From NCBI GenBank assembly GCA_950295325.1, contig OX485806.1, forward strand, positions 9,052,001-9,116,000: a stretch of 64,000 bases of DNA, written 5' to 3'. This DNA comes from Polytrichum commune (taxonomy: Eukaryota > Streptophyta > Polytrichopsida > Polytrichales > Polytrichaceae). The position numbers and the translations under genes are program-made. Numbering within the stretch: position 1 is the first letter of the stretch; every line of letters starts with the position of its first letter. Below the pieces are notes generated by a model. That model was given only the letters and a program-made list of their open reading frames with translations. It ran no database searches and was not told the DNA's origin. Of the stretch, positions 4,307-64,000 are shown piece by piece.

Positions 4307-4315
4307 GTAATTTAG
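4307..4315. repeat. 9-bp target-site duplication, left copy
   Basis: GTAATTTAG abuts the left end of the inverted-repeat element and is repeated exactly at 5599-5607 beside the right end. Confidence 0.85.
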
Positions 4316-5598: not shown

Positions 5599-5607
5599 GT
5601 AATTTAG
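5599..5607. repeat. 9-bp target-site duplication, right copy
   Basis: GTAATTTAG, identical to 4307-4315. Confidence 0.85.
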
Positions 5608-20100: not shown

Positions 20101-20381
20101 AAGGGAGGAGAATGGCGGCTCAACATATTGAGGCAACCCAAAGAAGGAGAAAGATTACTTTCGACAAACGACATAAGAGAAGGGCCCTAACACCGGGAAT
20201 GATGGTCATGATTCAAGACGCACGAAAGCTTGAATTTCCGGCGAAATTCAATGCGGTATGGTTAGGACCTTACCTTGTCTATGAGGTCTTTCCTAATAAT
20301 TCAATTCAATTGGAAACGTTGAATGGTGAGCTCTTTCCTACCCGTACATCGGGAAGTAGATGTAAGGAGTACCGAGCTTGA
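14142..20381 (+). CDS. Ty3/Gypsy gag-pol polyprotein
   Basis: One 2079-codon frame from ATG at 14142. In order it holds: a proline repeat (PPIPPIPPIPPI, about residue 110); a retrotransposon gag domain (about 150-290, with GEAYEWYRDHAEG); a CCHC knuckle CVQCGQPGHTRQFC (about 431) followed by a second Cys-rich patch; an aspartic protease with LVDGGSSLNIL (about 850); a reverse transcriptase with VCVDYRKLN (about 1273) and VFVDDFS (about 1373); an RNase H beginning FHVYCDAS (about 1520); an HHCC integrase zinc domain (about 1727-1770); and an integrase core with GIDYVGEV, SDRGTHFL and TNGQTERVNG (about 1800-1900). The family uses these parts to build particles, copy RNA into DNA and insert it. 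The unusual VDGG form of the protease site is typical of Athila/Tat-type elements. Confidence 0.95.
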   Translation: MQGRTRSQKPSLIVGLEKSTRKRRSSKISDRLEQDNVRIESCLNVEPRTRSILDTLELGAQLEEEITPSKLSGETSSENYTLREEFPVEVDRGLLNSSPVTMAEERGMDPPPIPPIPPIPPIPPIDPLVRPRGLPIVVPQNLAAMDMPSHLPKFYGTKDEDPSRHMERYIERLASFLITDPGYWLVWFPTTLEGEAYEWYRDHAEGHFRGWEQLQREFLNEFRPEVGQSTALRALSSLKQGREEEISAYIRRFDLVCTRFVGTMLNDDTLKQFFIQGFFKSGTIRGVLERNPLTLADAKRAARDIENLDKDHERLWRREDELIPQFIPIRPRVVAVEPAKYENQIPYAIVDTGPRPLAVREPAPLLALPAPRTDPHLEEVERRLGASQLGFQEAMIKQMQSLTDQMSLMIRSQQPGPPPPVESGRHSSGLWCVQCGQPGHTRQFCRSGQNRDQRGNGNPPQQNQRGQAPPHYGNGSNRGPQPRGQGGQNLEKKEFHPFCGRWHAQGQCWSEGQEFNCSNCGGSHPSDTCRQPDKIINVPYPVANPQQQARDNMRGARPQGVPANELRPPNLYYDHSNARQTFHPPAGLQTTTGYIPIQNRQGVPPNGSNGRQAPPTDPGPSNSQDVRFMDGVLEATCDDMLPLPTRIGEEQSQWPPHTNAITYELVKGKGVVEEAPALAVTTRARRGDAPLEVGIGEQGNYSSDEEINLSELDRVARRATKDVERENIILQDRERTNAVHDLDNSDVGEWEGPGVPVDEFDVVGNSKVERSTGYDLWADLSTLKADITFGQLLEISPTARKTLKEGMPVHKRMRKVKAKIAARIQSQGGRDVKAIEIEVVIVDKVVPNVLVDGGSSLNILPEDTMKKLGLGLTGPSPLVINMANQSSTTPLGMIKDCRMTTGGEEYLVTFHVIKMHSNKDTFPILLGRPWLRMANAMVNWGGPKPSITYGPEGNRVIVSIGSLEGWMKKEMYLPLEKEIDDLNENEIGKALVGVVHPEGQRVVIDSGSGSLGPNFYNYGDNGDYAQWLREYPESEVDVMVTFHQVGLGSEFPSVSLGEGSLLEPCEVLTEEEWVSGGLTPWVDDVEEGEVSLIHVDGTQEEDVIIESSKLEEPLHFKTTSTGIVVGQDVKDYPNVPSDWYRNKEEQAHVSEADWRYVDVKLKNGKTRQMKMGSKLGEKEVREYSNLVDEFSDTFAWSYDELKGIPREMVEHRIPLIPGARPIRQKERRMNPQLQLLVKAELERLLKAGFIKPVEITDWVSPMVLVKKKNGKLRVCVDYRKLNSCTQKDHFPLPFITLLLEEVGGHSRYTFMDGYAGYNQISIALQDIHKTAFTTPWGTFVWVVMPFGLCNAPATFQRLVMYIFTDLLFKSMTVFVDDFSTQSNVDDHLHCVREALVRCRKMRLALNPDKTFLGVNKGVLLGYVVSEKGREPDPDKIAAISDLATPTNSKGISKLLGHVGWYRELIPNFSKIAVPITHLLKKDVKFEWTDACQKAFEELRDRLSTYPVLIPPNWGKPFHVYCDASNVAIGSALCQATGEKEKDQPIAYASKQLTPAERNYSTTERECLAMVFSVKKFRHYLMCNPVVFFVDHMAIKYLINKAELSGRLARWVLLLEEFDYTVEYKPGRMHLQADHLSRLSEEIGKNPVNDMLVDDSLFVVTSTPEWYAGIVEFLTTHKLPKEWTKEERRKVRVNSRQFVVVGHRLFRRGSDGILRRCVSKTEVEAILIACHDSACGGHFSGQLTGQKILRAGYFWPTLFKDAHDYVRKCDACQRYARDDLRMEMPLHVSLPLIPFEKWGIDYVGEVHPQSSKGMKYIVVATEYLTKWAEAKAVKTDTAEHAATFMYENIISRFGVPKILVSDRGTHFLNDLIREMTEKFKIDHRKTTPYHPQTNGQTERVNGILVSILRKTVIDSKRDWDTKLTAALWAYRTTYKVTTRATPFSLVYGLEATLPIEYEVESLRVAVSTRLTESQSLRNRLTDLEALDEGRRMAAQHIEATQRRRKITFDKRHKRRALTPGMMVMIQDARKLEFPAKFNAVWLGPYLVYEVFPNNSIQLETLNGELFPTRTSGSRCKEYRA

Positions 20382-29073: not shown

Positions 29074-29321
29074 TGTTAAGGCAGCCTATAGCTAGCCTGA
29101 CGACCTATAGCCGAATATAGATGACGGTAGCCGCCTTCCGGAAGGTGGCTACACTATCCCCACGGTAGTGGGTCCGGGTTAGTTAAACATAGTATTGTAG
29201 GCTACTAAGTGGCGGCTAAGCCCCATTAATGTACTTAGTCTTAAAGCATATATATACGACCACATGACTCTTGTTAGTCACTTGCACTATCACACTTACC
29301 GGCTATTGCCTAGTCTTAACA
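29074..29321 (+). repeat. 3' LTR of copia element
   Basis: 248 bp, TGTTAAGG...CTTAACA. I see one difference from the reversed LTR at 2162-2409. Confidence 0.9.
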
Positions 29322-30739: not shown

Positions 30740-31035
30740 TATGTCTTTGTAGATGGAGATGAGCAGCTGCTTAGCCCCGGCGAAGCCCTGCCGGAACGCT
30801 GAAAGGCTGCCGGAGGTAAGAGGAGGGGGCTAGAGTCGAAGCAGCAACTTTGTTGCTCCTCGAGCCCTCTCCTCCATCCACCCACCTGTTCAGATTCCGA
30901 AAGGGCAGCCATACAAATCCCTGCACAACAAACTGCGAGGCACCTGAACAAAGAGAAAACTCGACGAAGTTACCGCTGCTACACCTGCACTCCACCATCT
31001 CCTCCCCATACTCCTGACTTCGGCGACCAAAGACC

Positions 31036-31700
31036 TGAGCAGCCACCGAAGATTACCTGGGCGGCAAAAGTATTGACATTGCTACCACCAAACTAAGCAA
31101 AGATCCCACCGAAGACTACTAGGGCGGCACAAGAACTGACTTTGACATCACCGAACTCAATCCAAATCTCACCCAAAACCACTAAGGCGGCGGCACAAGA
31201 TCGGCGTTGCTGATCACCGACCTCAAGCAAGAATCAAGCGACATCAGCAACCAAGGACCTGTGAAGCCACCAAAGATTACCTGGGCGGCAAAAGTACTGA
31301 CATTGCTACCTCCGAACTTAAGCAAGACCTCACCGAAGACTACTAGGGCGGCACAAGAACCGACATTGACACCACCGAACTCAAGCTAGATCTCACCGAA
31401 GACCACTGGTGCGGCGGCACAAGATCGACATTGTTGATCACCGACCTCAAGCAAGAATCGATCGACACCAGCAGCCAAGGACTTGTAAAGCCTCCGAAGA
31501 TTCTTGGGCGGCACAAGTACTGACATTGCTACCACCGAAGTTAAGCAAGATCTCACCAAAGACTACTGTGGCGGCACAAGAACCGACACTGACATCACCG
31601 AACTCAAGCCTAGATCTCACCGAAGACTACTGGAGCGGCACAAGAATCGACACTGCTATCACCGAACCCAAGCAGGAACCGAGATCGAGACCCAGCCTTC
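31036..31700 (+). repeat. ~222-bp tandem repeat in LINE leader, 3 units
   Basis: Units start near 31036, 31259 and 31481, each opening with a GAAGCCACCGAAGATTAC-like phrase and containing GGCGGCACAAGAAC. The last unit is partial or diverged. LINE leaders often carry promoter-like tandem units, which is the likely role here, but no promoter motif was identified. Confidence 0.75.
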
Positions 31701-32378
31701 CAGCCCACCAACATTACGACTCCAGGTGGTGTAGCCCCAGAACCAGATTCTTAAACTATAGCTTGCCCATTCATTGTTTGTTCATTTACAGTCCCACTCA
31801 CAGTCCCATCTCCTCAGTTCTCCGTAGAATCAAGAAACCCACATAGATTGACGCCCTTGGAGGATTCACTCTTTGTTTTCCCACTCATAGCCTCAGTATC
31901 ACCCCGCCTCAACCCAAAGACACCCCCTTGTTGCAGAACCCCAAAAAATTAAAAAACCTTAAGAATTAGAGAGATCCCCAAATTGTAAGACCCCACTCAC
32001 TGATTGATAGGTCAAAAGTCTCATTTATAGCCCATTTAAAAGTGTCTCCTCACAAAACCGTCTTAATAATCCTCCACTCCCGAAACCCTGCAAAACTTAG
32101 AGAGTTCAACGCTTCTGTCAAAACCCATTATCATCTTAGTTCTGCCTTCATACAAAGATACCTTCCCTTATATTGAAATAGCCTTTGTTCGACCAGTATA
32201 AACCATTGCCATAAAGAAATCCTGCTGCGGCTAAGTGAAACCAGTAACCACCATACGTAGACTGCCTCACAGATAGCAGGGATCGGGAGACTCTTGAATA
32301 TAACCGGCTGAGTGCATGAGTCTGCTGACTGAAGCAAAGCCAGCTGAAAAAGATTGTTGTTGCCACCGAAAAACAACC

Positions 32379-32735
32379 GGGGAACTTTAAGCCAAGGAGC
32401 TACTGGACAGCTGCTGGGAGAAGCTTAGAGTTGCGGAGTGCTGCCGCGGAAGAAGACTGTGGAGCTACCAAAAACAAGCCGGCCACAGAAATTGAAATTG
32501 TTGAGGAGCTGCCGGGGAACTTTAAGCCAAGGAGCTACTGGAAAGTTGTTGAGAGAAGCTTGAAGTCGCGGAGTTGCTGCCGCGGAAGAAGACTGTGGAG
32601 CTACCGAAAACAAGCCAGCTACAGAAATTGTAACTGCTAAGGAGCTGCCGGGGAGCCGTAAAGCCAAGGAGCTACTGGACAGCCGCAAGGAGAAGCTGGA
32701 GCCGTGGAGTTGTTGCCACTAAAGAAGACTGTGGA
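32379..32735 (+). repeat. ~135-bp tandem repeat in LINE leader, 2.5 units
   Basis: Units start near 32379, 32513 and 32650 with TAAGCCAAGGAGCTACTGG and contain GAAGAAGACTGTGGAGCTAC. The array ends about 45 bp before the ORF1 ATG at 32779. Confidence 0.8.
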
Positions 32736-32778
32736 GCTACAACTGGGGAGCTGCTGCCCACCGCATCCCAACCAAAAC

Positions 32779-34512
32779 ATGGCATCACCTTCCACATTCC
32801 GACCCATCTTGGGAGATGATGACAACATGGAGGTAGACACACCCACACAAAACCTCATGCGGATCTTAGCGGAGAAGGCTAAGGAGAAGCAAGCCGCGAA
32901 GGAAATAGGCACCAAGAGGACCCGGGAGAAGACAACACCGAACAAATCTCTACACCAAACCCCACAACGACGCCCACAAGCCACACAGGTAAATTCTATC
33001 TTCCCGGAACGAAGGTTCCGTCAAAATTTTTGATATGGTTTCACTAACATGGAGAAATTGGCTATGGAAGAGGGGTTGGAAGAGCTCTTCGATGGTGAAT
33101 CCATCGAAGATAGGGTACTTAGGGGTGTGCCAAGGAAGGAAGCGGAAGAAATGGAGGGGGTCGCAATATCCTTCCCAAGGATACCCCAAATTTATTACCC
33201 AGGTAAGAGAGAGGATGGTGTCCTTGGACAACACCTCAACCTAACACAAATCCCATATGATATCCCAATCGATCCCAATACATGTCTCTCTTTGGACTTC
33301 CATGTTGCTATTGAATTTCAATTACCCAACACCCCTCTCCTCCATAACCATGTAAAAGAACTAGTAAGGAAAAGACTTGAGTTGATGCAAATACCACTTG
33401 GTACTAACCTTATTGAGCCCATATCTATCATGTGCATGAGTGTTAAGAGAGGTGGGGAGAAAGGAGTTTGGGCGGGTATTGCCAAACTCCACCTTCTCCA
33501 CCCCGAAATTGATGGGGTGGCCTTGTTGAAAGGACTTAGACCATTCATTCTACAATTGGACCCCAAATCAACCCAAGGTACTCTTGGAAAGGTATGTAAG
33601 ACTTACCACTCCATAGCTAGGAACAACAACCTTTCAATCAAAATCACTAGCGAAACTTTGATTGATGTCTCTTCACACATGCTCTTCAAAAATGTTTTAG
33701 AGAATAGTTTTAGGAGAGGTTATGAATTTGAGATTGTAGAGGTGCAAAAGGACACTTCTAACAACCATGCTTACATTGTTGCACCAACCCCCTCACAAGC
33801 TAAGAAAATTCAAGATCTCCAAGTTGCAACACATCATGAAATTTTGGAAGGACAGTTGAAGAAAGGGCCTTCTCTCACCTTGGAGCAAAAAAAAAGGAAA
33901 GAAGCTCTAACTCTCACCTTCTACAACCTTCCCATCTTGATGAGCATTGATGACACATCTCTTGAAATTTGTAAGATAATTGGAACCAAGAATGTTGTCT
34001 CCATTTGGTTCCATAAGCAAGATGGAATTAGACACAATGGTAGTGCAAATGTTGAATGCCTCAACCCCTTTGTATACAAAAAGTTTGTAGGAAAAGAGGA
34101 AAAAATTGGTGTTTATCATGTGGAAATCACTCCACACCGTAGAAGTCTTGATGGTATTGACAAACCCTCCAAAGATTTGTTGGTCAAGTTTGGATTTGAA
34201 GATACTAACACTTGCTTGGTGAACACCATTGAAGCAATCCAAAACCAAAACCAAGGGGAGAAGAATGCCACCAAAAGCGAAGTTTTTACCATCATGAAGG
34301 AGGCCATTGAAGAAGGCAACAAGAAACTCAAGCTTGAACTACACGAAGAGATGAAGGTCTTGAAGGATGACATAGTCAAAGAGGCCCACAACTATGTAGA
34401 TGACATCAACGAAAAATTGAAGAAGCAAATGTTGGACATCCAGCACATTAACCATAGCACTTACCGGGATGCAACAAATTACTGGGTTGGTAAACCCAAA
34501 TCTTATGATTAA
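32779..34512 (+). CDS. LINE ORF1 protein (RRM-like, coiled coil), one in-frame stop
   Basis: The frame runs from ATG 32779 (MASPSTFRPILGDDDN) to TAA 34510-34512 and is interrupted once, by TGA at 33031-33033; ATG 33049 follows 15 nt later in the same frame, so one protein of about 577 residues is implied. The N-terminus is basic and disordered. Counting from 33049, an RRM-like region (about 285-370) begins TLTFYNLPILMSIDDTSLE, and a weaker one may lie at about 195-260. A Lys/Glu-rich coiled coil follows at about 415-470 (NKKLKLELHEEMKVLKDD). ORF1 proteins of LINEs bind the element RNA and travel with it. There is no CCHC knuckle. The assignment is by position and architecture. Confidence 0.7.
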
Positions 34513-34530
34513 AGACCTGCCAAATGTGGA

Positions 34531-37500
34531 TTGACCACAAATCGCCGGGTAAAACAAAAGTATTTACTTCAATACTATCTTAGATACATACACATATGTA
34601 GACATAGTATTAAACATAGTATTACACATAGTATTCTATATACTATTACACCTAGAATAAATACTAGATACCACCGTACTACTCATAGTATCCCACAATG
34701 TCCAAAATACCATATGAAATACAAGTTATCTACTTTATACAAACATAAATTCCATACTCAGGCAAAATGCCATACTCAAGCAAAATACTATACTCAAGCA
34801 AAATATCATACCCAAGCAAAATACCATACTCAAACAAAATACCATACTCAAACAAAATGCCATACTCAAGCAACACACCATACTCAAACAAAATACCATA
34901 GTCAAGCAAAATGCCATGCTCAAGAAAAATGCTATACTCAAGCAAAATACCATACTCAAGCAAAATACAATACCCAAACAAAACACTATACTCAAACAAA
35001 ATACAAATACCATACAATTAATCCAAAATACACATACTTCCTACTCAAACAAATAAAAAGCATAACACCCGCCAAAACTAACCTTTTCACTATAACCAAA
35101 AACATAATCATAAAAAACCAAAGAATAAATAAGACTAAAACCCGACCACACCCAAACATCATACACACACCTACAACAAAGTCCGTACTCTATAATAAAA
35201 AATACCATCATACTAGCCATGATACCATACGACGGCCAAAATACCATATGAAATATAAATACAATCACTTTACTTTACACATGCACAAAGACAGAACTCA
35301 AACGAAACAATATACACACCCAAAATACAAACCCCGCACAAAATACATATTACACCCAAAATATAATCCTCACCAAACATATAAACTCCACCAAAAATAC
35401 AAACCCCACCCAACATACAAAACACATCCAAAATACACATACTTCTTACCCAAACAAGTAAGAAACATAACACCCGCCACAACCAACCCTTCCACCACAA
35501 CCAAACATATATTCACAAAATATCAAAAAATAGATATCACTAAACCAAACACACCTTACCCAAACCTCAAAACCCACCCAAAATTATACTACAACCCAAA
35601 ACACAAATACCACGAAAAATACTCAACTTCCATGTTAAAAATTAACAAAAACCATAATAAACTAGAACGAGCTCGGCCTACCGGCCTCGCCAATAAAGAA
35701 AACAAAAAACAAAAAAAGATAAAAGAAAAGATCAACAAAACAAAAACATACCAAAAAACCAAAACCACAGCTAACATAACAAGACATAAACCACCCAACA
35801 CCCCTTACCAACAAAGACCCATCAACCTAATTACTATATCCCCTATGAAATTAGAAATCCTTTTGTATTCCTATAATACAAACATCTACGCTGCCCTACA
35901 ACCACAATACACCTCTTATGCAATAAAAGATATACCATCAAAAAACAAAGAAACCCAACCACACCCTAGTACCATATACACACCTACAACAAAGTCCATA
36001 CTCTTTAAAACAAGATATTATCATACTAAGCATGATATCCTACAATACCCAAAATACCACATAAAACACAAGTACAACTACCTTACTATATACACACACA
36101 AAGACAATACTCAAACAATATACTACACGCATCCAAAATGCAAACCCCACCCAAACTCAATGTTACACCCAAAATATAGACCTCAACAAAAATACAAACT
36201 TCATTATACATATAAAACCTTACCGAAATTAAACATAAACCCTACGGACAAACACAAGAAACAAACAAACATAACCAAAGCACACATCCAAAATACAAAA
36301 CACACATATACAAAACCAAAACCATATCAAACACAAAAGACAATAAGAAAACATACAAACACACACCATATCACTACAAATACAACAACCCACAATACCA
36401 CCTCACCCCTTTCAAAAAAAAATCCCCTAAAACACCAAAACATAAAAACACAAAACATAATCCACGACAACCACCTAAGAAGGGCTCGGCCTACCGGCCT
36501 CATACCCATACTCATTCCACCCCAAAAAACCAATAAAAACAAATATCAAACACTCAAATCACACCAAAACATTAACCCAAATCTTTACCTCAAAAAACAA
36601 CTCCATCCCCACACTAAGTACAAAATTGCACCCAAACACAAAAAGGTTTTAGCCCACCGGCCACGCCATAAAAGTTATAAATACCAATCTACAAACGAAG
36701 AGAAACCAAAAGTAATAACAATCTACAACACACACCTCTTACCCAAACAACTTGAAGAAATCACATCCATCCTACACTACAATGCCCATCCAACCCACAA
36801 ACACCCCCAACCTCACTCAAAATACATATCACATCCAAAACATAGACTCCATCCAAGACACAACTCTCATCCAAAGAATAAACTTCATCCGAAATATAGA
36901 ATCCGCTCAAAACTTAGACTTTACCTTAAAAACAAAGTGCATCCACAACAACGCCTAAAGCATAATACCCACTCAAAACAAGAAACCCAACCTAACCTAG
37001 AACCTCACCCACTATCTAAAAAACATCCCAACCTACGCTCAAAAAACACACCATACCCTAGTTCCAAATCCAACCTCCACTTGAAATACAAATCATATCA
37101 CAATTACACAATGACCGTGTCCTACCATCTCCACCACAAGCCAAACCCTATTACAACCAAATGGAAACCACGCACAACTACAAAACACGTACCCCAAGAC
37201 AACTCCCATACACACCTCTTAACCAAATATAACACCCACCAAAACCACAAATCATTCCCCAGAAACCACCCCTACTCAAAACTAAATTTGCACACTAAAC
37301 AAAAACTCAACCCGAAAAACAAAGCAACCTCAACCTACCAACCTCACCTCTCAACAAACACCAAACCATACCTACAAAACAAATGTTCCAAAAATAAACC
37401 CTACCCTAACTTCGAACACCATCACAAAATCAAAAACCTATTAAGCCCTCATACAAAATACCAACCCCACCCAAAAAACACAATGGCCTCGGCCTACCGG

Positions 37501-38058
37501 CCTCGCCACACAAATAATAACAAATACCACTTCATAAATAATTGGAAACCTAACTCAATAACAAGCCAAAAATCTATAAATAATACAAAACCACACTTCT
37601 CACCCATACAAATAGAAAACACCATACCCGCTATACCTAACCTCTATACCACAACCAAATTCACAATCACAATATATCTAAAAACAAACATGAAAAATCC
37701 AAAAATAATTCACTTCCACAGATACTACTTCATTACCAAACTAGAATTACTAAAATGCGGGGACATAGAATCCAAGCCCGGACCAATGCCTAACATACTA
37801 CATACACATCCTGCTACACACAAAAAGAGAGCCAACATATACTTCATCCCAAACACTATAAAATTACACCCTGAATACCAACACATAGCAAATACATTTG
37901 CTCCCATACTAAAAAATACACACCCACTACACCATCAAGCAATAAATACCCACCCACATCTACATCAAATACATCCAAACACAAAGGCAATCACCACTAA
38001 CCCATATGCTATATGCTATAGTCATCACCATCCACCCCTCAATAGACACATGCAATAG
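34531..38058 (+). CDS. LINE ORF2 N-terminal low-complexity region (1175 codons)
   Basis: An open frame of 1175 codons in the same phase as ORF1, from which it is separated by one TAA. It begins at a TTG, not an ATG; the first ATG in phase is about 180 nt further on. The protein is almost entirely Lys, His, Tyr, Thr, Pro, Asn and Gln. It starts with about 14 copies of a 6-residue unit (QAKYHT; 18 bp, about 34749-35005), then degenerate HPKYKPH-type repeats with a longer period of about 813 nt. The plus strand is very poor in G, so chance stops should be common, yet this phase has none over 3.5 kb, which argues for selection on the frame in the recent past. It is predicted to be a basic disordered segment, perhaps nucleic-acid binding. 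A 2A-like motif sits at residues 1071-1085. Confidence 0.65.
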   Translation: MTTNRRVKQKYLLQYYLRYIHICRHSIKHSITHSILYTITPRINTRYHRTTHSIPQCPKYHMKYKLSTLYKHKFHTQAKCHTQAKYYTQAKYHTQAKYHTQTKYHTQTKCHTQATHHTQTKYHSQAKCHAQEKCYTQAKYHTQAKYNTQTKHYTQTKYKYHTINPKYTYFLLKQIKSITPAKTNLFTITKNIIIKNQRINKTKTRPHPNIIHTPTTKSVLYNKKYHHTSHDTIRRPKYHMKYKYNHFTLHMHKDRTQTKQYTHPKYKPRTKYILHPKYNPHQTYKLHQKYKPHPTYKTHPKYTYFLPKQVRNITPATTNPSTTTKHIFTKYQKIDITKPNTPYPNLKTHPKLYYNPKHKYHEKYSTSMLKINKNHNKLERARPTGLANKENKKQKKIKEKINKTKTYQKTKTTANITRHKPPNTPYQQRPINLITISPMKLEILLYSYNTNIYAALQPQYTSYAIKDIPSKNKETQPHPSTIYTPTTKSILFKTRYYHTKHDILQYPKYHIKHKYNYLTIYTHKDNTQTIYYTHPKCKPHPNSMLHPKYRPQQKYKLHYTYKTLPKLNINPTDKHKKQTNITKAHIQNTKHTYTKPKPYQTQKTIRKHTNTHHITTNTTTHNTTSPLSKKNPLKHQNIKTQNIIHDNHLRRARPTGLIPILIPPQKTNKNKYQTLKSHQNINPNLYLKKQLHPHTKYKIAPKHKKVLAHRPRHKSYKYQSTNEEKPKVITIYNTHLLPKQLEEITSILHYNAHPTHKHPQPHSKYISHPKHRLHPRHNSHPKNKLHPKYRIRSKLRLYLKNKVHPQQRLKHNTHSKQETQPNLEPHPLSKKHPNLRSKNTPYPSSKSNLHLKYKSYHNYTMTVSYHLHHKPNPITTKWKPRTTTKHVPQDNSHTHLLTKYNTHQNHKSFPRNHPYSKLNLHTKQKLNPKNKATSTYQPHLSTNTKPYLQNKCSKNKPYPNFEHHHKIKNLLSPHTKYQPHPKNTMASAYRPRHTNNNKYHFINNWKPNSITSQKSINNTKPHFSPIQIENTIPAIPNLYTTTKFTITIYLKTNMKNPKIIHFHRYYFITKLELLKCGDIESKPGPMPNILHTHPATHKKRANIYFIPNTIKLHPEYQHIANTFAPILKNTHPLHHQAINTHPHLHQIHPNTKAITTNPYAICYSHHHPPLNRHMQ
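34749..35005 (+). repeat. 18-bp tandem repeat coding QAKYHT
   Basis: About 14 imperfect units of CAAGCAAAATACCATACT within the long frame. The length is a multiple of three, so copy-number change would keep the frame. Confidence 0.85.
37741..37785 (+). other. 2A-like ribosome-skipping motif
   Basis: The frame reads LELLKCGDIESKPGP, close to the 2A consensus (G-D-V/I-E-x-N-P-G-P) and to the 2A-like motifs known in several LINE clades. The one departure is Lys where Asn is usual. It lies between the low-complexity region and the APE endonuclease, where skipping would release the enzymatic part as a separate protein. Activity is not certain with Lys at that position. Confidence 0.65.
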
Positions 38059-39406
38059 CATACTAGCCCAACCCCAAAATTACCACTTTAACGACATATG
38101 GACCAACATATTAATTATTAGACTAGCTAACCTCACCAACCCCCCCGAAAGGCAAATATTGACACCTCACCCCTACACAACATTTGTAGGAAATAATCAA
38201 GATATAATACTCCCAAAAAATTCAATACACACAGAAATATATGAATTCATTCACAACCAAGATACTACACCCACACCCATCACCCTCTAAAACAAATTTA
38301 CCTTCCTCCCAAATCAATTGATCACTGAAGCACTTCGATGCCTAGAACGCATAAACGAATACTCGCACCCACCTCCACCCCCAGCTACTCCTGCACCAAC
38401 CATAAGAATCAACACAGACAATGTACACGAAACAAACATAATAACATGGAATGCATCATCACTCAACACTTCACTGCCAAACCTACAAAGCCTAATAAAC
38501 AATTCGCTAAACAACACAGCAATCATACATATCCAAGAAACCAAATTAACTGCAAACAAATTTACAAAATACATACAAAATCTATTTCCGGAATTTAAAC
38601 TCATTTTCAACAACACACATGCACTCACAAGATGCATACAACAAAGAATGTCCTATACACTCGGAAGAGGAGGCCTACTCACACTTATCCACAAAAAATA
38701 TGCATTCCCTAGGAATATTACCAAAATTCCCACACCAGCAAATATCTCCCCATATCTACAAATAATTAAAATAAACAATCACCCACTAATACCTTGGCTA
38801 ATCATACATATGTATATGCCTACATACATAGAAGACATACACCTCATCCCACACCTTAAGAACGAAATCACTAATCAAATCACTATAAACCTCAATCATA
38901 TATACACATTATGTGGCGACTTTAACCAAGATATTACAGTTATGGGCAGGCAAAATAACAACATTAACATCCCCCTACAAGAAGAAAATTATCAATGGAA
39001 AAATTTTACTACATCACTCAACCTAGAATATATCCCAACTAACACTCGCATCTCCAGACAAGGAGGCTATAATTACACATCAACAAGTCTAATAGATGGA
39101 TTATACATCCACTCACCAGACAACAGCAAATTCATCTCCACCACAAATACAAATATGAATCTAAACTCAGACCATTATCCAGTTGCACTACATATCCCCC
39201 ACAACACCCTTATAGCAAGATCCCCACCCCCCACAAACACGTCACCAACTAGAATACTAACCCCAATACCACGAGAAAATATCGAAAAATTCAACATAAC
39301 ATTCTTCGAAAAAAACTCTGTCCAAATAAAAACCCTTACCACATTACTAGAAAACCATAAACACTTAAGCCCCGGATCAATGGATAGAAGCTTGTACAAC
39401 ATTTGA
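38006..39406 (+). CDS. LINE ORF2: APE-type endonuclease
   Basis: The reading phase changes from that of the long frame at about 38000-38058. A first piece (38006-38290) ends at TAA 38288-38290 and the same phase continues to 39406 (362 codons from TTG 38318). It shows the exonuclease-endonuclease-phosphatase signature of LINEs: NIITWNASSLN, then IIHIQETKL (catalytic Glu), LCGDFNQDI (Asp and Asn) and SDHYPVALHI (final Asp-His). In APE LINEs this domain nicks the target DNA to prime reverse transcription. The key residues all appear intact. Confidence 0.85.
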
Positions 39407-41411
39407 CCATATTGTAAACAAAATTTCAGAAACAATTGAAAAAACATGTAAAGCAGACCCGTTACCAAACCTTACGAGCAGAACATCACAACAAGGTGGT
39501 TTTCTGCCACGAAAACTGGCCAAAGAATGGAAAAAACACCTCAACACATACCACCTCATAAGAAAAACCATATACATTGCACAACACGATCCACTCTAGC
39601 AAACACACCCCATCCTAAATAATATACGAAACCACCAACACACAAACATCCCACACCCACCTATCACAACGGCACCTCCTACTGAGTGGATTAATACCAT
39701 AGCAACCATAGCAAAAAAAGCAAATAAAGAAGCCAGAAAAATCACCACAAAATACACCAAAGACTGCATTTTAAAAGCCGTATCAAAATACAGACAAATG
39801 TACGAAAGAAGCCCTAAAACAATAAATCGGAAAGTCTTCAAGAACAGTGAAACCTCACCCCTGGACTCCATCATTGATAGACAAAACAATATACTAACCA
39901 ACCCAGAAGACATCGCATCAGAAATTCACATACAACAATCCATCAGTAACCATCCTATAGTCCCCACATGCAAATACCAAAATACACACCCACTACACTG
40001 CACATGTGGAGTCCGACAATATTCATGGCATGACCTAGACGGATACATAATTGACAAACGAGGAGAACCCCACACCCCTCTACACACATATTTTGACCAA
40101 GAAACATACGACTTTTGTCTTAAAAACCTAAGTAATAACAAAGCCCCAGGCCCAGACAAAATACCTAATTCAATTGTAAAAAATATGCCTCCACGCTTCC
40201 ACAAATAACTCTTCCTATTCTTTAAACACTGTTATAAACAAAAACAAATTCCCGCATCATGGAAAACCAGTCTAACAGTATTACTATAAAAAAAAGGAAA
40301 CCCATCACAACTAACAAACAACAGACCTATTGCGCTAGCTAACACCATATATAAATTCTACACGAGTACACTAACCTCTATTCTATCAACATATGGCGAA
40401 AAATACCAAATATTATATGACAGTCAAGAAGGCTTCAGAGCAGAGACAAGCACTTCTAGACAAATTCAACTACTCATCGGAGCGCTTGAGGACGCAAGAC
40501 TCACGAACCAAGATATATATATTCTCTACATTGACTTCAAAAACGCCTTTGGCTCCATTGATCATGCCAGACTTTTAGCTATAATGAAAGATCTGGGATA
40601 TCCCACTGATTCCATAAATCTCATAGGAAACATATACTCACAATCCTCAATAATATTCATTGGAAAACACTTCGGAAAAACCTCACCAATCCCTATTCAA
40701 AGAGGTATAATACAAGGTGATGCCCTTAGCCCATATCTATTTATCATATTCCTAGAACCCCCCCCCTCAAATGGCTACAACTAGGAAATAATGGATACAC
40801 TTTTGGCACATCTAAAGTAAAAAATCTCATCAGCAGCATATGCAGATGATCTTGCAGCAATCGCCAATAAACTAGAGACACTGCAAACACAACTCATCAA
40901 ACTAGACAAATTCTGCGAATGGGTAGGAATGAACCTTGGAATACCCAAGTGTGCAATAACTGGCTATCCAAACAAATCCAAACTTCACCCCACAACCTTT
41001 AAAGCCTTAATCCAATCCACCAATATACATTACAGGATTCAACCTATACCAGTCTTAAACCAACATGAACCATACACGTATCTAGGAATAAACCTTGCAC
41101 CATCACTCAAATGGAAAACACAAATAAATACTACTACAGCTAAAGTCATCAAACAATGTCAAGCCTTTGTAGCATGCCCAGCTACTATGAAACAAAAAAT
41201 AAACATGGCAAATACAGTCATACGCGCTGGAATAGCATACAGCTTCTACGCAGTACCATACTCCATACCAGCTATAAAAAAACTAGATAAAAAAATCATA
41301 GCACTTCACAAAACGATTTGCGGGATACCAAATGCACATCTAACATCGCTACACAACTCCCACACAACCTATTTGGAATCGAAGCTTTCTCACTACAAAA
41401 TGCCTATCTAA
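39381..41411 (+). CDS. LINE ORF2: reverse transcriptase (interrupted)
   Basis: The reading phase moves again at about 39381, and the RT then follows with stops at 39597-39599, 40206-40208 and 40287-40289 and a slip at the C-run near 40760. Recognisable blocks are NNKAPGPDKIPNSIVKN, NNRPIALANTIYKF, the motif-A segment YIDFKNAFGSIDH, the motif-B segment IIQGDALSPYLF and the catalytic AYADDLAAIAN (about 40840). The region 40929-41411 continues with KCAITGYPNKSKL and YLGINLAPSLKWK, typical of the RT palm-thumb border. This enzyme copies the element RNA at the nicked target. The breaks make this copy inactive. Confidence 0.85.
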
Positions 41412-42518
41412 GATGCATTGGAGAACAACTACAAAATGCCCTCAATGACAAAGGGAGAATTGGGAAATATATACTGGTCTATTACAATTCATAGTCGCCA
41501 AATATGGGGGCTCTCAAGAAATCACTCGCATTAAATACCACCACTGTGTTAGATCACCCATCACTAGAACATTGTTCCTGCTCAAACATAAAGCCGGAGT
41601 CCATCTAAAAAGCATAATACATAACTTCCTACTAACCCCATCCTCACTTGAAACTACATGGATGCAAGACGCACAAACGCTACATGGCCTTAACTCCAAC
41701 ACCTCACTTAAACTACTACACAAACTACTTATACATAATATAACCACACTAGACCAAATTACCATGCCTAATGGTACCACCCTAATGAACAAAGATGAAT
41801 TCAAAATCTACCACTCTACTCCTTCTAAACTTATCCAAAGCGCACTTAATATAGCTAATCAACTATTCTGCCAAACCAATGCAATCAATGCTCCCTACCT
41901 TGCCAACAACATCATCCAACAAGATCCCTCAAAAACAAATATATAATAAGAAATGACAACATCCTACCTCACACACCGACCGCCCCCGTACACCCCCCTA
42001 ACCTCCCCATCCCCCATCTACCTCCTCCCCCCAACAACATGCTTAAAAACCCCCGACAATTCCCCATACACAAAATACTCGATCACAAACAAAAACAATC
42101 TAATGACCACAATGGAATAAAAAGAACAGTCACGTCATACCTATGTCAATGGACCACAACAAATAACAACACATATAATAAATGACGAACCCAAAGGGAC
42201 CTATACCCCTACTGTGAAGCCAACATATGCAATCACAACACAAACCTGTTTATCCAATATTACACAGAAAGACAACACAAACATTTGTCAAACATCATTA
42301 ACGCCTACTTCACCACAGAACAACACCGAGACACAAGATACATCACACCAACCACAATAATTCCGCTAGTACATATATCTATTAGTGAATGCAACCCAGA
42401 AAACGACATTGAAACAAACTCTGATACTATCCAAACACAATTCGATGTCGCTCACATATACGAAGACAATGGAAGGCATCTCATCACCATCCCGAAAGCT
42501 AGATTAACATGGCTATAG
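41412..42518 (+). CDS. LINE ORF2 linker between RT and RNase H (fragmented)
   Basis: It contains open pieces at 41572-41946 (124 codons, with HAGVHLKS-like and NGLNSNTSLKLLH-type helices) and 42285-42518, separated by a stop-rich, very C-rich stretch (41950-42250). The last piece is in phase with the RNase H frame, from which it is separated by TAG 42516-42518. No known domain was recognised. Confidence 0.4.
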
Positions 42519-44321
42519 AAACAATACCAATTGGCAAAAAATACCACACACGGTCTAGAACCATCTACCCAATCATTCGAAACTGAAATTGTTTGGCTAT
42601 ACCAAAGATACAAATACCATATCCCAAAAAACGACCCACTCAAAAGAGCCCAATATACAATACCAACTCAAATATTGGATCTACTAATTACAACATTCAA
42701 TATTAACCACTCATATTTTTCATCCCCAGTTACATGTCCTACACAATTCACCCAATTCTACTCACCATTCTCACGAGACATAATATTTGGATCCTTAGGT
42801 AAAGTGTTTGACTATAAATGGCAAGGAATCGGATATGCACATCCTCACAACTCAACAAACCTACAACAAGCCATTCACTGGGCACGCACGGCGGCCCAAA
42901 ATGACCCTTACACAATCACTATAATTATATCCCTAGACACATATTGGTACCAAAACTCGAACCCACACACAGGCCCATTCCCAGACACACATGTCATTGC
43001 CCATTTTGCCGCTGATACAATCACATACGAAGAACCAACAATACCCCCCGAGCTCAATATCACAAGGAAAGAACCATCTACCATGCAAATATTTTGTATC
43101 CATCACCAAAATAATAACATAGGTACCTACGAGCAAATGAAGTTAATAAATAACACAGCAAATAACCTCCAAATACTACAAAGCCACACTCAAATTGCAC
43201 CACCTACCCCTCCGAACATCACCGTTAACCCTAGTAAAAAATGGGCTAAATCAAACTACCCAAACACACCCCTACACAATAATATCCCCACCCCACAACT
43301 TCCAAACTACCAAACTAACTTACCGCTAAAATTCCACCCCCAATTTAGCTACTACACGGACGGATCCTTTATAAAACCCAAAGAAATTGCCCCTGGGGTA
43401 TGGAGAAGAGAAAGAGCTGGATACGGTATCTATAGCCCCAAAGGCTTAAATATCGCCAAAAGACTCCATGGGCATCAAAACATACTACGTGCAGAAATGA
43501 TGGCTATACACAAAACACTAAGAATCATCAATACACAATTCCCTAATGAACCCGCATTTATATTCACAGACAGTCTAAACGTATTATACCTACTCAACAC
43601 ACAAATTAAACACCCCACTCTCCATAATAGTCACCCAGACCAAACCACACTCAACTCCATGGTAAAAATCCTTCAAGACCGTACACAGCCAATCACACTA
43701 TACAAAGTCAGAGCACACGTCAACATTGACGGTAATGAAAAAGCGGATAAACTAGCAAAAGACGGGTTAGAATTAGAACACAGAATTGCCATCCACCCAT
43801 ACGAACATGCCCACGCCACCCCGTACTATTATCAAAAGGACGTCTGGGCCTCGATGGCAGACGTCCCAGACAAAGGCCCAGTAAGATTCTTAGAAAAACA
43901 AATTAAAAAATATGATAGGGAAACCAATATAGCAATCATGGCCACACAAACCCCCAACACGTGTAAATGGACAGAAAATATAGACATTGACAAAGAACTG
44001 TCCAACGAATTCTGGACAAATCCCTTAATCACAGGCAAACAAAAATTCTGCCTTATTAAATTCCGCACAGGAACATACATGGGTAATGCTAGAAAACAAA
44101 TGTCCTTCGGTCACCAGAGGTACCCCTCTATCACGTGCCCTATATGCAATTCAAATGATCCAGATACTTGGCTACATGTACTACTGAAATGTAACCAACA
44201 ACATATATACTCACTACGAATTAAAAGACATAACAAAGCAGTCGGAGAAATTAGGAAGCTCCTAATCTCGTCCGAAAAAATCCCGATGTTTTACTCTCAT
44301 GAATGCCGGTACCTTCAATAA
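42519..44321 (+). CDS. LINE ORF2: unassigned domain, RNase H and zinc motif
   Basis: An open frame of about 600 codons. Counting from 42531, residues 50-220 form an unassigned globular-looking region (FGSLGKVFDYKWQGIGYAHP, later QQAIHWARTAAQNDPY). It faintly recalls a methyltransferase-like fold, but that is only an impression. The RNase H follows at about 273-430, with all four acidic positions visible: YYTDGSF, LRAEMMAI, IFTDSLNVL and HVNIDGNEKADKLAK. Near 537-555 is CPICNSNDPDTWLHVLLKC, a zinc-binding motif of the kind found after the RT of many LINEs. RNase H removes the RNA strand after copying. The frame overlaps the next one by 23 nt. Confidence 0.8.
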   Translation, partial: KQYQLAKNTTHGLEPSTQSFETEIVWLYQRYKYHIPKNDPLKRAQYTIPTQILDLLITTFNINHSYFSSPVTCPTQFTQFYSPFSRDIIFGSLGKVFDYKWQGIGYAHPHNSTNLQQAIHWARTAAQNDPYTITIIISLDTYWYQNSNPHTGPFPDTHVIAHFAADTITYEEPTIPPELNITRKEPSTMQIFCIHHQNNNIGTYEQMKLINNTANNLQILQSHTQIAPPTPPNITVNPSKKWAKSNYPNTPLHNNIPTPQLPNYQTNLPLKFHPQFSYYTDGSFIKPKEIAPGVWRRERAGYGIYSPKGLNIAKRLHGHQNILRAEMMAIHKTLRIINTQFPNEPAFIFTDSLNVLYLLNTQIKHPTLHNSHPDQTTLNSMVKILQDRTQPITLYKVRAHVNIDGNEKADKLAKDGLELEHRIAIHPYEHAHATPYYYQKDVWASMADVPDKGPVRFLEKQIKKYDRETNIAIMATQTPNTCKWTENIDIDKELSNEFWTNPLITGKQKFCLIKFRTGTYMGNARKQMSFGHQRYPSITCPICNSNDPDTWLHVLLKCNQQHIYSLRIKRHNKAVGEIRKLLISSEKIPMFYSHECRYLQ

Positions 44322-44811
44322 TAATCCCCAAGAAAATATTGTCCCCAATTGGCTACCCCCCTGCACATGTAACACACAAAGATGTCATTGCAACGCAAGA
44401 TTTCGACCTGATACACTCTGCGTTAAAGGATTACCATATCAAAATGACCCTCCCATTGACATTGACCCTAACCTCACCATACAATTTATTGAATTCACAT
44501 ATTGTAACGACAGATTCTCCCCAGAAGCAATAGAAGCAAAAAACAACAAATACAAACCATTGATTGATAGTATCGCTTCCAGAGGATGGAAAATCGAACC
44601 AATTATTGTCATCACAGCTGGGGCCCGAGCTACGGCCCACATCTCATCTATGAAAATACTAGAAGAAAATCTCAAAATACCCATGGTTACCATCAAAAAT
44701 ACCTTTAAAAATATTAATACCATTGCAATACAATATGCCATGTCCATCCTCCTTCATAAGAGGAGAATTGAAAACCACCAACCGCTCCCCCAAAACTTAG
44801 ACCCTCCATAA
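44299..44811 (+). CDS. LINE ORF2: restriction-like endonuclease (RLE)
   Basis: A 170-codon frame from ATG 44299. A Cys cluster (CTCNTQRCHC, residues 22-31) precedes RPD (36-38), then QFIEFTYCND (62-71), KNNKYKPLIDSI (81-92) and GWKIEPIIVITAGA (96-109). The order R-P-D, then a strand with an acidic residue, then K-x-x-K-Y and a final hydrophobic strand is that of the PD-(D/E)XK restriction-like endonuclease at the C-terminus of R2-type and Dualen elements. Comparison with the copy at the right edge of the window suggests this was originally one frame with the RNase H and that an A-run length change split it. Confidence 0.7.
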   Translation: MNAGTFNNNPQENIVPNWLPPCTCNTQRCHCNARFRPDTLCVKGLPYQNDPPIDIDPNLTIQFIEFTYCNDRFSPEAIEAKNNKYKPLIDSIASRGWKIEPIIVITAGARATAHISSMKILEENLKIPMVTIKNTFKNINTIAIQYAMSILLHKRRIENHQPLPQNLDPP

Positions 44812-44960
44812 AACCCAAAAACTTATATAATATTTAATATCTATTTACAGCTCAGAATGAGGGATTGATGCCGGTTGGTTGGTACAAATTTCCTGCCTTT
44901 TACTCACTTGCAGCACCAAGTCACGTCTTACATTTTAAACGATCATACGGACTCGACTGG
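44812..44960. other. LINE 3' end and junction region
   Basis: AT-rich sequence follows the last stop; the LINE 3' boundary is probably within 44820-44860. No poly(A) or clear tail repeat is visible. Confidence 0.4.
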
Positions 44961-51030: not shown

Positions 51031-51577
51031 TTGCTTTAATAGTGTATAATGAACGATATAACGCCGTAGTTAATCTCTGTCGACCCCTCTAGCTACTGTT
51101 GTTGAGTTTGTAAAAGTGGAGATTTAATACTGATATTGAGTAGCTGATGTGGGAATCATGATGGTGGGTGTCAGGTGATAAGATCACTTTCAAGGTGTCT
51201 TATATCATGATATCTGGGGCGATTGGGCTGGCCTCATACATGTTCAGTGCTGTGTGCGCTTCAACTCCGCAAGAAGAAGGTGCTTACTACTCCGCAAATA
51301 TAAGATGCAGACAGGCCTCTAATTAATTAAGGCTTTTTTCTCTTCTTTATATCAAACCTCCAAACTTAGACCATTACTTAATGTATGGAAGAGTAGTAGG
51401 CTGGCAGGAGCCAACTGATTATTATAGACTGAAATGTGGCGATTGAACATGCAGTGTTCCGGAAGTTAGAGATTGTAGAACCAAATTTTGGTGACAGGCA
51501 AATCTGTGGCTCTCATCAAATCTTTGACAGTCTCAAATAAGAGACACATCTTATTTGTAGTTATTTAGTGTGTGAAG
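51031..51577. promoter_or_regulatory. Upstream region of the kinase gene
   Basis: There are 547 bp between the 5S-like sequence and the kinase ATG. TATA-like words occur (for example CTTTATATC at about 51345), but no core promoter can be fixed. No coding region is seen. Confidence 0.3.
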
Positions 51578-53212
51578 ATGGCAGGTTCGGTAGACATTCT
51601 CGACCGCTGTAAAGATTTTATAAAACATGTACAGTACCTTGTATCAGCTGAAAACCCTAACCCTCCGCAAATCAACAAGCAGCAGTGCCAGCTTTTGGCT
51701 GAAAAGCTTCCAAGGCTCCAAGGAGCCATACTCAAGTTTGAGGTAGAGACGTATCGTGAACTATTAGCAAACAAGGAGACCGAAGGCTCAGAAATTGCCT
51801 CCTTGATGATCCCAGCTGCGGAGTTGAATTCAGTGCTTGAACGAATTACGGCCCTAATTGAAGAGTGTTGTTGCGGCACCGATGAATGGTTAAACACAGC
51901 TCTCAAGCAAGGGGACCTCAAAGAGACCTTCTCGGGAATTCTCTACGACTCCGAATGGCATGAGAAACTCATCTGCAACATTTTACTCACATCCATAACA
52001 TTCGACAATAATGTATTCCACGCCGGAGAATGTGAAGGGAAGTTGAGTGTGGTTGAGTCTCTCGATTTATTGTTCGCAGCAAAGCAGGATCAAGAGACTC
52101 TCAAGAACCGCTGTCAACGTGAACCATCCTCTCAATGTCTTGCAACGCAGCTGCTGGTAATTCTAAATGTGAAACCCTCGGACATAGCCATCGACTCGAG
52201 TGGCTTAACCTCCTCACCTCTCATCTTCTGGGTGAGCCCCGATGATTTGTCCCGAGGCGAAGTACTCGGCAGGGGAGGGTTCGGAGTGGTCCGAGAAACT
52301 ACATGGTTAGGGTTGAGATTTGCAAAGAAAGATTTCAGGGGAGGAGACAACAAATTCTTCAGGCAAGAAATTGGTGCTCTTGCAGGGTTAAACCATCCAC
52401 ACATTGTGCGGTTGGTGTGTTGTGCGATGGACAAACGTAGCTGTTCCTTGGTGATGGAGCTAATGGACACCGATCTCTATAACTTTCTCGAAGAGTACCG
52501 AGAAAACATGCCCTCCGGAACAACAACAAAAAGTTCTCCGTTCTCACACATCCAATCCGTTGACCTAATGCTTCAAATAGCCGAAGGCATCCGGTACATT
52601 CACAGCAAGGGCTTGGCACACCGAGACCTCAAGTCACCGAACATCCTCATCAAATTCCCTGAGCCTTCCAAACCTTTGGGACCTCGAGAACCTTCAGACA
52701 GAGATTGGACATTAGTGAAGGGCAACGATTCAGGCTGCAACAATAGCAGGGTGTTCCTTGTTAAGGTGGCTGATTTCGGTCTCACAAAAATTAAGAATGC
52801 CAGCACCAGATACTCTCACATGACATTGAACACCGGTACCCGGAAGTGGATGGCACCGGAGGTTTACAAGGTGAAGGATTATGATAAAGATGAGGAGCAG
52901 TTGCCAGATCGGTTCCAGCCTTTTAAAACCGATGTGTATAGCTTTGGAATTGTGTGCTTCGAATTGCTCACCGGTGAGGAGCCTTTTGCTGATAGCAACC
53001 AAGGTGAGCTTTACCGCAGGTTAAAAGGCGGAGAGCGGCCTCCAATCCCTGTAGATTGCCCTGCAAGATTGGCAAACCTCATTCAACGTTGCTGGGATGG
53101 CTATCCTCGAAATCGGCCGGAATTTCACGCCATCTGCAAGGAGCTTCGGTACATCAAGGGTTTGCTCCTTCTTGGTAAGCTTCCATTCCGTCCCCAACTC
53201 CGGTGGGTGTAA
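51578..53212 (+). CDS. Protein kinase with N-terminal DUF1221-like helical domain
   Basis: A single uninterrupted frame of 544 residues. I chose ATG 51578 (MAGSVDILDRC) because the longer frame begins with GTG. Residues 1-190 are a mostly helical domain (DRCKDFIKHVQYLV, QCQLLAEKLPRLQGA) like DUF1221, which precedes kinases in plants and includes the HeLo-type bundle of plant MLKL-like proteins. The kinase domain spans about 225-535: glycine loop GRGGFGVV (about 230), a lysine in RFAKKDF (about 250), HRDLKSPNIL (about 348), DFGLTK (about 398) and WMAPEV (about 426). All catalytic residues are present, unlike the MLKL pseudokinases, so it is probably an active TKL-type Ser/Thr kinase. No signal peptide or membrane segment is visible, so it should be cytosolic, possibly a defence or cell-death regulator (inference). 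The jacalin gene follows about 1.2 kb downstream. Confidence 0.85.
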   Translation: MAGSVDILDRCKDFIKHVQYLVSAENPNPPQINKQQCQLLAEKLPRLQGAILKFEVETYRELLANKETEGSEIASLMIPAAELNSVLERITALIEECCCGTDEWLNTALKQGDLKETFSGILYDSEWHEKLICNILLTSITFDNNVFHAGECEGKLSVVESLDLLFAAKQDQETLKNRCQREPSSQCLATQLLVILNVKPSDIAIDSSGLTSSPLIFWVSPDDLSRGEVLGRGGFGVVRETTWLGLRFAKKDFRGGDNKFFRQEIGALAGLNHPHIVRLVCCAMDKRSCSLVMELMDTDLYNFLEEYRENMPSGTTTKSSPFSHIQSVDLMLQIAEGIRYIHSKGLAHRDLKSPNILIKFPEPSKPLGPREPSDRDWTLVKGNDSGCNNSRVFLVKVADFGLTKIKNASTRYSHMTLNTGTRKWMAPEVYKVKDYDKDEEQLPDRFQPFKTDVYSFGIVCFELLTGEEPFADSNQGELYRRLKGGERPPIPVDCPARLANLIQRCWDGYPRNRPEFHAICKELRYIKGLLLLGKLPFRPQLRWV

Positions 53213-63356: not shown

Positions 63357-63360
63357 CACT

Positions 63361-64000
63361 GTGTTTTCTGGTGGATTATTGTTATATGTGCCTGCATTCA
63401 TGAGAACTTAACATCTTGATTTTTTTGATGCCACTATTAGTGTTCTTAATTCCCATATTGCCTTATTATGTCTTTTGGTTCTAAGGGCATGTATGTGGTG
63501 TTGTATGCACTTTAGGAGTAGGTGTAGCCATGTGTCGGGGTCTAGGGAGTTACATATGGGACATGTGATTGACGGGAAGGCTTCTCTACCGAAGAATAAT
63601 TATTTTTTGGCGTTCCCCATATATTGGCCATGTCTTAATTTTAGAAGGCATGTTTTTTGAGCATCCGTAATGTTTTTGTTCGTCCAAAATTTATTTGATA
63701 ATTCATTGTCTATTGTCTCATTGGCTATCCATTTATCTATGTTAGGGTATAGTATAGGAATTAATTCTAGGTTTATATTTTTATCGTATTTTATAAGATA
63801 TTTTTCAAGGAATCTAATGGGTCCTTTGTCCGGGGTTGAGTCCATTGATGGCCATTCATCTCTTTGGTAGTAGTATGGGGTTGAGTGGGCAAATTCATGT
63901 GATTGGGAGGCGTTGAGGCGTTCAATAGTTGTGCCTTCTTTAGCAAGTGCGTCGACTTCTTCGTTTCCCTTGATGTTTGCATGTGCTCTGACTTTATATA
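63361..64000 (-). mobile_element. Second Dualen-like LINE copy (RNase H to RLE start), continues off window
   Basis: The minus-strand translation matches the LINE at 43700-44350: RAHANIKGNEEVDALAKEG (end of RNase H), then PDKGPIRFLEKYLIKYDKN and ITCPICNSLDPDTWLHLLLK (zinc motif), then LMNAGTYNNNPPENTV (start of the RLE part). It diverges clearly from the first copy in DNA but keeps the order and most residues, so it is a separate, older or sister copy. It has stops of its own, for example after MGNAKK and after KKSRC. Its 3' end is cut at about 63357, where unrelated sequence begins. Confidence 0.85.

What the first reader, a model, noticed from the sequence alone, without database searches (positions are those of the whole stretch)
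30740..44830. Dualen-like LINE with both APE and restriction-like endonucleases in a land plant
Seen: one element carries an APE endonuclease (QETK, GDFN, SDH), a reverse transcriptase (YADD), an RNase H (D-E-D-D), a C-terminal zinc motif and then a PD-(D/E)XK-type domain (RPD, E, KY). Known: LINEs normally have one nuclease type; Dualen/RandI elements of green algae have both. Flowering-plant LINEs are mostly L1 and RTE types with APE only. Inference: this is a land-plant relative of that algal clade, and at about 14 kb it is unusually large for a LINE.
Basis: partly seen in the sequence, partly recalled or inferred. Interest (0 to 1): 0.88.

Follow-up and report, generated by a model that had tools for sequence, protein, structure and literature searches.

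The report
Two-nuclease jumping gene in a plant
A worn copy of a large retrotransposon in plant-like DNA seems to carry two different DNA-cutting domains plus an unexpected methyltransferase-like domain; its nearest kin found here is an uninterrupted element on a stray DNA contig, and such two-nuclease elements are known mainly from algae.

Summary
The core of the finding holds. At 38.3-44.83 kb lies a decayed ORF2: APE, reverse transcriptase, RNase H, CCHC-RHN zinc motif and a C-terminal PD-(D/E)XK-like (RLE) frame. Its RT does not group with L1 (AU p 9e-9; no named RTE was available) but forms a 99-100% supported clade with three RTs on MAG contigs that I take for eukaryotic contamination. 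One, L016, is an uninterrupted 3038-codon frame with the same domain order. Weak points: the RLE has no significant profile hit; no named Dualen sequence to compare; host species unknown. In passages seen, Dualen/RandI is reported from green algae, cryptophytes and (RepeatModeler label) an apicomplexan; none from a land plant.

The parts
34513..38058 (+). long upstream ORF (1181 codons without stop), low-complexity K/T/H/P/Y-rich, with 18-base tandem repeats 34716-35057; probable ORF1 of the element
   Evidence: longest ORF in 300 dinucleotide shuffles 195 codons; third-position composition like the RT; composition change point at 34648, inside it
37759..37785 (+). 2A-like motif GDIESKPGP (canonical has N where K stands; consensus recalled), upstream of APE
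   Evidence: only match to D[VI]ExxPGP in six frames of the window; chance about 4e-7 in this ORF by letter frequencies, pattern chosen after seeing it
38291..39406 (+). APE endonuclease frame with the motifs WNASS, QETK, YMP, GDFN, SDH
   Evidence: PF14529 E 5.7e-4, TIGR00633 E 0.0014, both under cut-off; L002 APE E 0.015
39600..41411 (+). reverse transcriptase, YADD at 40839-40850; stops end at 40208, 40289, 40784, 40820
   Evidence: PF00078; L016/L001/L002 E 3e-76 to 9e-75; R2 87 bits vs L1 53 bits; trees
42366..42935 (+). CAPAM/PCIF1-like methyltransferase domain; HP at 42840-42845 where PCIF1 has NP of NPPF
   Evidence: PF12237 E 2e-12, 3.4e-13; alignment to PCIF1 6irv; L001 and L016 at the same place
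43347..43769 (+). RNase H (D-E-D-D, recalled as the active site, present)
   Evidence: PF00075 E 1.3e-13; Ribonuclease H1 chain E 4e-5; L016 E 5e-19
44136..44240 (+). CCHC zinc motif followed by RHNKA
   Evidence: shuffle z 22.6 against L016
44299..44811 (+). RLE-like PD-(D/E)XK frame: RPD 44404-44412, E 44491-44493, K 44548-44550
   Evidence: collinear with L016; 3 of 2000 shuffles reach the score; PF15518 E 0.03, under cut-off
63357..63998 (-). second copy: end of RNase H, CCHC-RHN and first 23 residues of the RLE frame matched, same frame but with two in-frame stops; cut by the window end and interrupted near 63357
   Evidence: tblastn 59% over 193 aa E 8e-72 and 78% over 23 aa; codon differences 53/44/113 of 192
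35672..37504 (+). three exact copies of CTCGGCCTACCGGCCTC (35672, 36485, 37488) in the long ORF, two of them in one frame; role unknown

Best explanation
It is an old, inactive copy of a non-LTR retrotransposon of the dual-endonuclease (Dualen/RandI-like) kind, about 10.2 kb (34.6-44.85 kb), in plant nuclear DNA. Shown: domain order, RT relationship, second copy, codon pattern of past purifying selection. Inferred: the RNA was translated as ORF1, a 2A-like break, and a large ORF2. ORF2 worked by target-primed reverse transcription: one nuclease nicks the target to prime the RT on the element's RNA, the other probably cuts the second strand; RNase H clears the template; the CCHC-RHN region holds target DNA as thought for R2. 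The CAPAM-like domain, lacking NPPF, most likely binds rather than methylates, for example the capped 5' end of the element's own RNA, favouring full-length copies. Roles of the two nucleases and of this domain are untested.
For: Domains in order by Pfam. RT 36-38% identical to L001/L002, E 3e-76 to L016. Uninterrupted L016 frame of 3038 codons with APE, RT, RNase H by Pfam, CAPAM-like piece, CCHC-RHN and RPD...ELKY by eye. Trees: window + three contig RTs 100/98 and 99/99 (100/99 without outgroup), next to R2 (95/97; with L1 in the set 88/93 and 92/93); AU rejects window with L1 and L003 (9e-9) and inside R2 (0.004). CAPAM-like domain in 3 of 3 sequences that reach that far (window 3.4e-13, L001 3e-7, L016 6e-4; only the window's is over the cut-off), each with HP. 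Second copy with dN 0.28-0.31 against dS 1.6 or saturated.
Against: The RLE has no significant profile hit in Pfam, NCBIfam or PHROGs nor in PDB sequences; L016's own C-terminus hits no nuclease either (best Ku, E 0.036). Its local score to L016 ranks second among 7470 overlapping six-frame segments of the window, so score alone does not prove it. APE likeness to L016 is weak (16 of 2000 shuffles reach it; not among the eight best of 1494 segments). PF12237 was not listed for the whole L016 protein (E up to 1) nor in its MAG (E up to 0.1), only for the cut-out piece. No RLE catalytic part in the second copy. No target-site duplication. No named Dualen or RTE sequence compared. A weak PHD/RING-like finger of L016 and L001 was not seen in the window.
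Confidence: 0.83

Rival explanations
1. An APE-type LINE whose C-terminal frame is not a nuclease but a DNA- or RNA-binding tail; the RPD...E...K match is coincidental.
For: No significant nuclease profile hit for the window or L016 C-terminus; window has EFT where L016 has ELK; local score not unique.
Against: The frame follows CCHC-RHN, as in R2-type elements (recalled); L016 keeps RPD and ELK in an uninterrupted frame; 3 of 2000 shuffles reach the score; weak PF15518.
Confidence: 0.12
2. The element is an R2-like (RLE) element next to an unrelated APE-bearing LINE fragment, so the pair is a junction of two elements.
For: Frame changes between APE and RT frames; RT is nearer R2 than L1.
Against: L016 has APE and RT in one uninterrupted frame; L002 has both in order and in one frame with one stop between; APE and RT of the window share third-position composition; AU rejects the RT inside R2 (0.004).
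Confidence: 0.03
3. The ORF at 33034-34512 and the tandem repeats from 31016 are this element's ORF1 and 5' UTR, making it a true 14 kb LINE.
For: Adjacent and same strand; its stop at 34510-34512 directly precedes the next ORF in the same frame.
Against: Third-position composition unlike the RT (p 7e-15) and a composition change point at 34648; no family hit over its cut-off.
Confidence: 0.25

Closest known systems
Dualen / RandI group of non-LTR retrotransposons
   Same: Both APE and RLE in one element, with RT and RNase H (passages of PMC4640811 and PMC3636483)
   Different: Reported, in the passages seen, from green algae (PMC4438587, PMC8226300), cryptophytes (PMC12747079) and by RepeatModeler label an apicomplexan (PMC9714946); a CAPAM-like domain or 2A is not mentioned in those passages; the cysteine protease of Dualen (recalled from the 2005 abstract) was not found here
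L016, uninterrupted element on a contig of the MAG that holds L002
   Same: APE, RT, CAPAM-like domain with HP, RNase H, CCHC-RHN, RPD...ELKY in the same order
   Different: No broken frame; 57% GC; has a weak PHD/RING-like finger; RT only 31% identical (37-38% over the tree columns); host organism unknown; frame runs in from the contig start
R2 (PDB 9nl2, 9nl3, 9dou, 8gh6)
   Same: Closest solved RTs; CCHC and RLE at the C-terminus (recalled)
   Different: R2 has no APE, RNase H or CAPAM-like domain (recalled); AU test keeps the window RT out of R2
Plant L1 and RTE LINEs
   Same: APE-bearing LINEs of plants, often with an RNase H (PMC9033089 passage)
   Different: RT apart from L1 in the trees (RTE not tested); no RLE in them (recalled); the review names only L1 and RTE among plant LINEs

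Membership tests
Dualen/RandI | APE endonuclease upstream of RT | tested here: met
   PF14529 E 5.7e-4 and TIGR00633 E 0.0014, both below cut-off, with all expected motifs
Dualen/RandI | C-terminal domain with PD-(D/E)XK motif order after CCHC | tested here: met
   RPD...E...K..KY, collinear with uninterrupted L016
Dualen/RandI | that domain scores significantly to a known RLE or PD-(D/E)XK profile | tested here: inconclusive
   best PF15518 E 0.03; no nuclease in PDB by sequence; AlphaFold model pLDDT 35, not used
Dualen/RandI | RT outside the APE-only rows and outside R2 | tested here: met
   trees and AU tests, with L1 as the one named APE-type row
Dualen/RandI | RT groups with named Dualen/RandI elements | not testable with these tools
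   I had no annotated Dualen sequence
Dualen/RandI | RNase H | tested here: met
   PF00075 E 1.3e-13
Dualen/RandI | cysteine protease (recalled from the original description) | tested here: inconclusive
   no protease hit in the upstream ORFs, but these are low-complexity or of unsure membership
L1 | RT clusters with L1 | tested here: not met
   AU p 9e-9 for window with L1 ORF2 and L003; R2 87 vs L1 53 bits
RTE | RT clusters with RTE | not tested
   no named RTE sequence was used
R2 | RLE only, RT inside R2 | tested here: not met
   APE present; AU p 0.004
CAPAM/PCIF1 methyltransferase | homologous domain | tested here: met
   PF12237 over its cut-off, 50 vs 31.1 bits; PMC7641849 passage calls this Pfam family a CAPAM-like methyltransferase
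CAPAM/PCIF1 methyltransferase | NPPF catalytic motif (recalled) | tested here: not met
   HP at that place in window, L001 and L016

The most novel reading that the evidence does not exclude
A lineage of two-nuclease LINEs, found in a plant and in unidentified (perhaps algal) eukaryotes, carries a captured cap-methyltransferase fold turned into a non-methylating RNA-end (cap) reader that ties reverse transcription to full-length capped RNA: a retrotransposon that checks the 5' end of its own template.
Probability: 0.25. Interest if true: 0.87.

Novelty: new variant of a known kind. Interest (0 to 1): 0.72.

Why it matters
Elements with both nucleases are proposed intermediates between RLE- and APE-type LINEs (PMC4640811 passage). 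A land-plant member would extend their known range, and the uninterrupted L016 frame gives one protein in which the division of labour between two nucleases could be tested. The shared CAPAM-like domain is, as far as the searches here show, an undescribed part for a LINE (lists of 10 and 35 were capped at 15 of 52 and 10 of 2,002 papers).

Tried and rejected
L1 membership: rejected by tree. Composite of two elements: spoken against by L016. Target-site duplication: none found. Own-genome search: no genome held. Viral contigs: four scans gave no relative. More kin in genomes: RT of L016 against 395 and 72 genomes of the classes of the two MAGs found close kin only in those two MAGs; three other genomes gave weak hits (E 1e-5 to 4e-4). 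PF02048 (a toxin family name) in L001 at E 0.002 is under its cut-off, falls on a cysteine-rich finger and I take it for chance. AlphaFold of the RLE (single sequence, pLDDT 35.4) and of the CAPAM-like domain (two rows, 34.4) gave models too poor to search with, so no fold search was run. The frame after the RT (41449-41946) shows no likeness to L016 (826 of 2000 shuffles reach the score). Of the ten loci, L001 and L002 are close kin; L003 (both strands), L004, L006, L007, L009, L010 served as other LINE-like RTs (not typed further, save that L003 is nearest L1); L005 was left out of the trees because its RT stretch is nearly that of L006; L008 was in the first tree only, being long-branched and full of stops; of the PDB R2 proteins 9dou and 8ibw were not used as rows. 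L019 and L020 served as outgroup; I take them for group II intron RTs by look. Land-plant Dualen in print: searches showed none; lists capped at 5 of 8,667, 40 of 95 (mostly German text) and 15 of 206; others (5; 8) were listed in full.
Full report
Observation. Pfam finds Exo_endo_phos_2 in 38291-39406 (E 5.7e-4, below the curated cut-off), RVT_1 in two RT pieces (3e-17, 2e-5) and RNase_H (1.3e-13). The RT frame 39600-41411 holds four stops, and the frame changes between APE and RT, after the RT, and between the zinc motif and the RLE frame; the copy cannot be active.

Unexpected domain. Between RT and RNase H, Pfam PF12237 (PCIF1_WW) scores 47-50 bits against a cut-off of 31.1. A passage of PMC7641849 states that this family is misannotated and is a CAPAM-like methyltransferase. 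PDB search aligns the stretch to PCIF1 chains 6irv and 6irx, weakly (E 0.07 and 0.3); the position of the catalytic NPPF (motif recalled) reads HPHN.

Relatives. Two, L001 and L002, match at E 1e-70 and 2e-69 and 36-38% identity; they lie in MAGs titled Clostridiales and Mollicutes, isolates B1Sed10, and I take them for eukaryotic contamination. A search of the same two MAGs found a third RT on a 9489-base contig of the second. That contig, L016, holds one uninterrupted frame of 3038 codons that runs in from the contig start, with Exo_endo_phos, RVT_1 and RNase_H, PF12237 on the cut-out piece (E 6e-4; not listed for the whole protein nor for that MAG), CCHC-RHN and RPD...ELKY. L001 reaches PF12237 at 9e-6 as a whole and 3e-7 as a piece (30.6 bits, just under the cut-off). 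L002 ends within the RT region and does not reach the domain. Shuffle tests of window against relatives: CAPAM-like z 9.8 (L001) and 9.5 (L016), 0 of 2000 each; zinc region z 22.6, 0 of 2000; RLE z 4.8, 3 of 2000; APE z 3.3, 16 of 2000. Among 7470 overlapping six-frame segments of the window the RLE frame ranks second, not first, against L016, so its identity rests on position, motif order and continuity more than on score. APE against L016 is not among the best eight of 1494 segments; the CAPAM-like stretch is first and second there.

Tree. With 17 rows (window, three contig kin, three R2, eight other LINE-like RTs, two outgroup RTs) the window joins the three contig RTs with 100/98 and, with L1 ORF2 added and L008 removed, 99/99 (100/99 without outgroup). 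The group stands next to R2 (95/97; 88/93; 92/93). L003 is nearest L1 among solved RTs (107 vs 68 bits). No named RTE was in the trees. PDB scores: window R2 87, 83, 83, R2Bm 62, L1 53 bits; L016 R2 94, 93, 92, L1 60, R2Bm 52, so L1 outranks R2Bm there.

Second copy. tblastn of L016 on the whole window found a further match on the minus strand at the window end. It is 59% identical to copy 1 over 193 aa, with 23 residues at 78% that begin the RLE frame in the same frame as the zinc motif; it too has two in-frame stops. Differences fall 53, 44 and 113 on the three codon positions of 192 codons; dN 0.28-0.31, dS 1.6 by one method, saturated by another, a third failed. So the lineage was long active and under selection. 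The copy is interrupted before RPD.

Upstream part. The frame 34513-38058 runs 1181 codons without a stop, while the longest ORF in 300 shuffles was 195 codons. Its third-position composition matches the RT (p 0.34), unlike the ORF 33034-34512 (p 7e-15); the composition changes at 34648. Near its end stands a 2A-like GDIESKPGP at 37759-37785, the only such match in six frames. I saw no 2A in what precedes the APE of L016 and L002, as far as their contigs reach (by eye).

Literature (passages only). Dualen defined by both APE and RLE (PMC4640811, PMC3636483); Dualen/RandI listed for green algae only in 2015 (PMC4438587), in Chlamydomonas relatives (PMC8226300), in cryptophytes (PMC12747079) and, by RepeatModeler, in the apicomplexan Besnoitia (PMC9714946); named without hosts in two Repbase papers; plant LINEs as L1 and RTE (PMC9033089). 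No paper seen on a land-plant Dualen or a CAPAM-like domain in a LINE, several of these lists being capped. Subscription literature and Repbase are not held, so novelty is provisional.

Host. A 2086-aa Gypsy-type ORF, a Copia-type fragment and a kinase gene of a type I know from plants point to a plant; the species, and land plant against streptophyte alga, were not established.

Verdict. A decayed dual-endonuclease, Dualen/RandI-like LINE of about 10 kb with a CAPAM-like domain, probably in a land plant: a new variant of a known kind.

Noticed in passing
window 33034-34512 and 31016-32740: ORF of 492 codons with no family hit over cut-off, preceded by 224-base and 136-base tandem repeats; composition unlike the LINE. 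Perhaps part of another element.
   Followed up: partly
window 5732-7638 and 56695-58939: Long inverted repeats, 93-95% complementary: two copies of one element in opposite orientation.
   Followed up: no
window 4308-5606: Fold-back structure, arms 98-99% complementary.
   Followed up: no
window 14121-20381: Uninterrupted 2086-aa Gypsy-type ORF with 300-base repeats identical at 11275 and 20443, so probably young.
   Followed up: no
window 2162-2409 and 29074-29321: 248-base stretches, 100% complementary, the second just after a Copia-type RT fragment: probably LTRs of one family.
   Followed up: no
window 51569-53212: Kinase gene in one open frame with a plant MLKL-like look (name recalled; kinase by Pfam).
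   Followed up: no
L001, L002, L016: Retrotransposon contigs, eukaryotic by inference, binned into bacterial MAGs (isolates B1Sed10_159 and B1Sed10_225).
   Followed up: partly
window 35672, 36485, 37488: Three exact copies of a GC-rich 17-mer inside an A/C-rich ORF.
   Followed up: no
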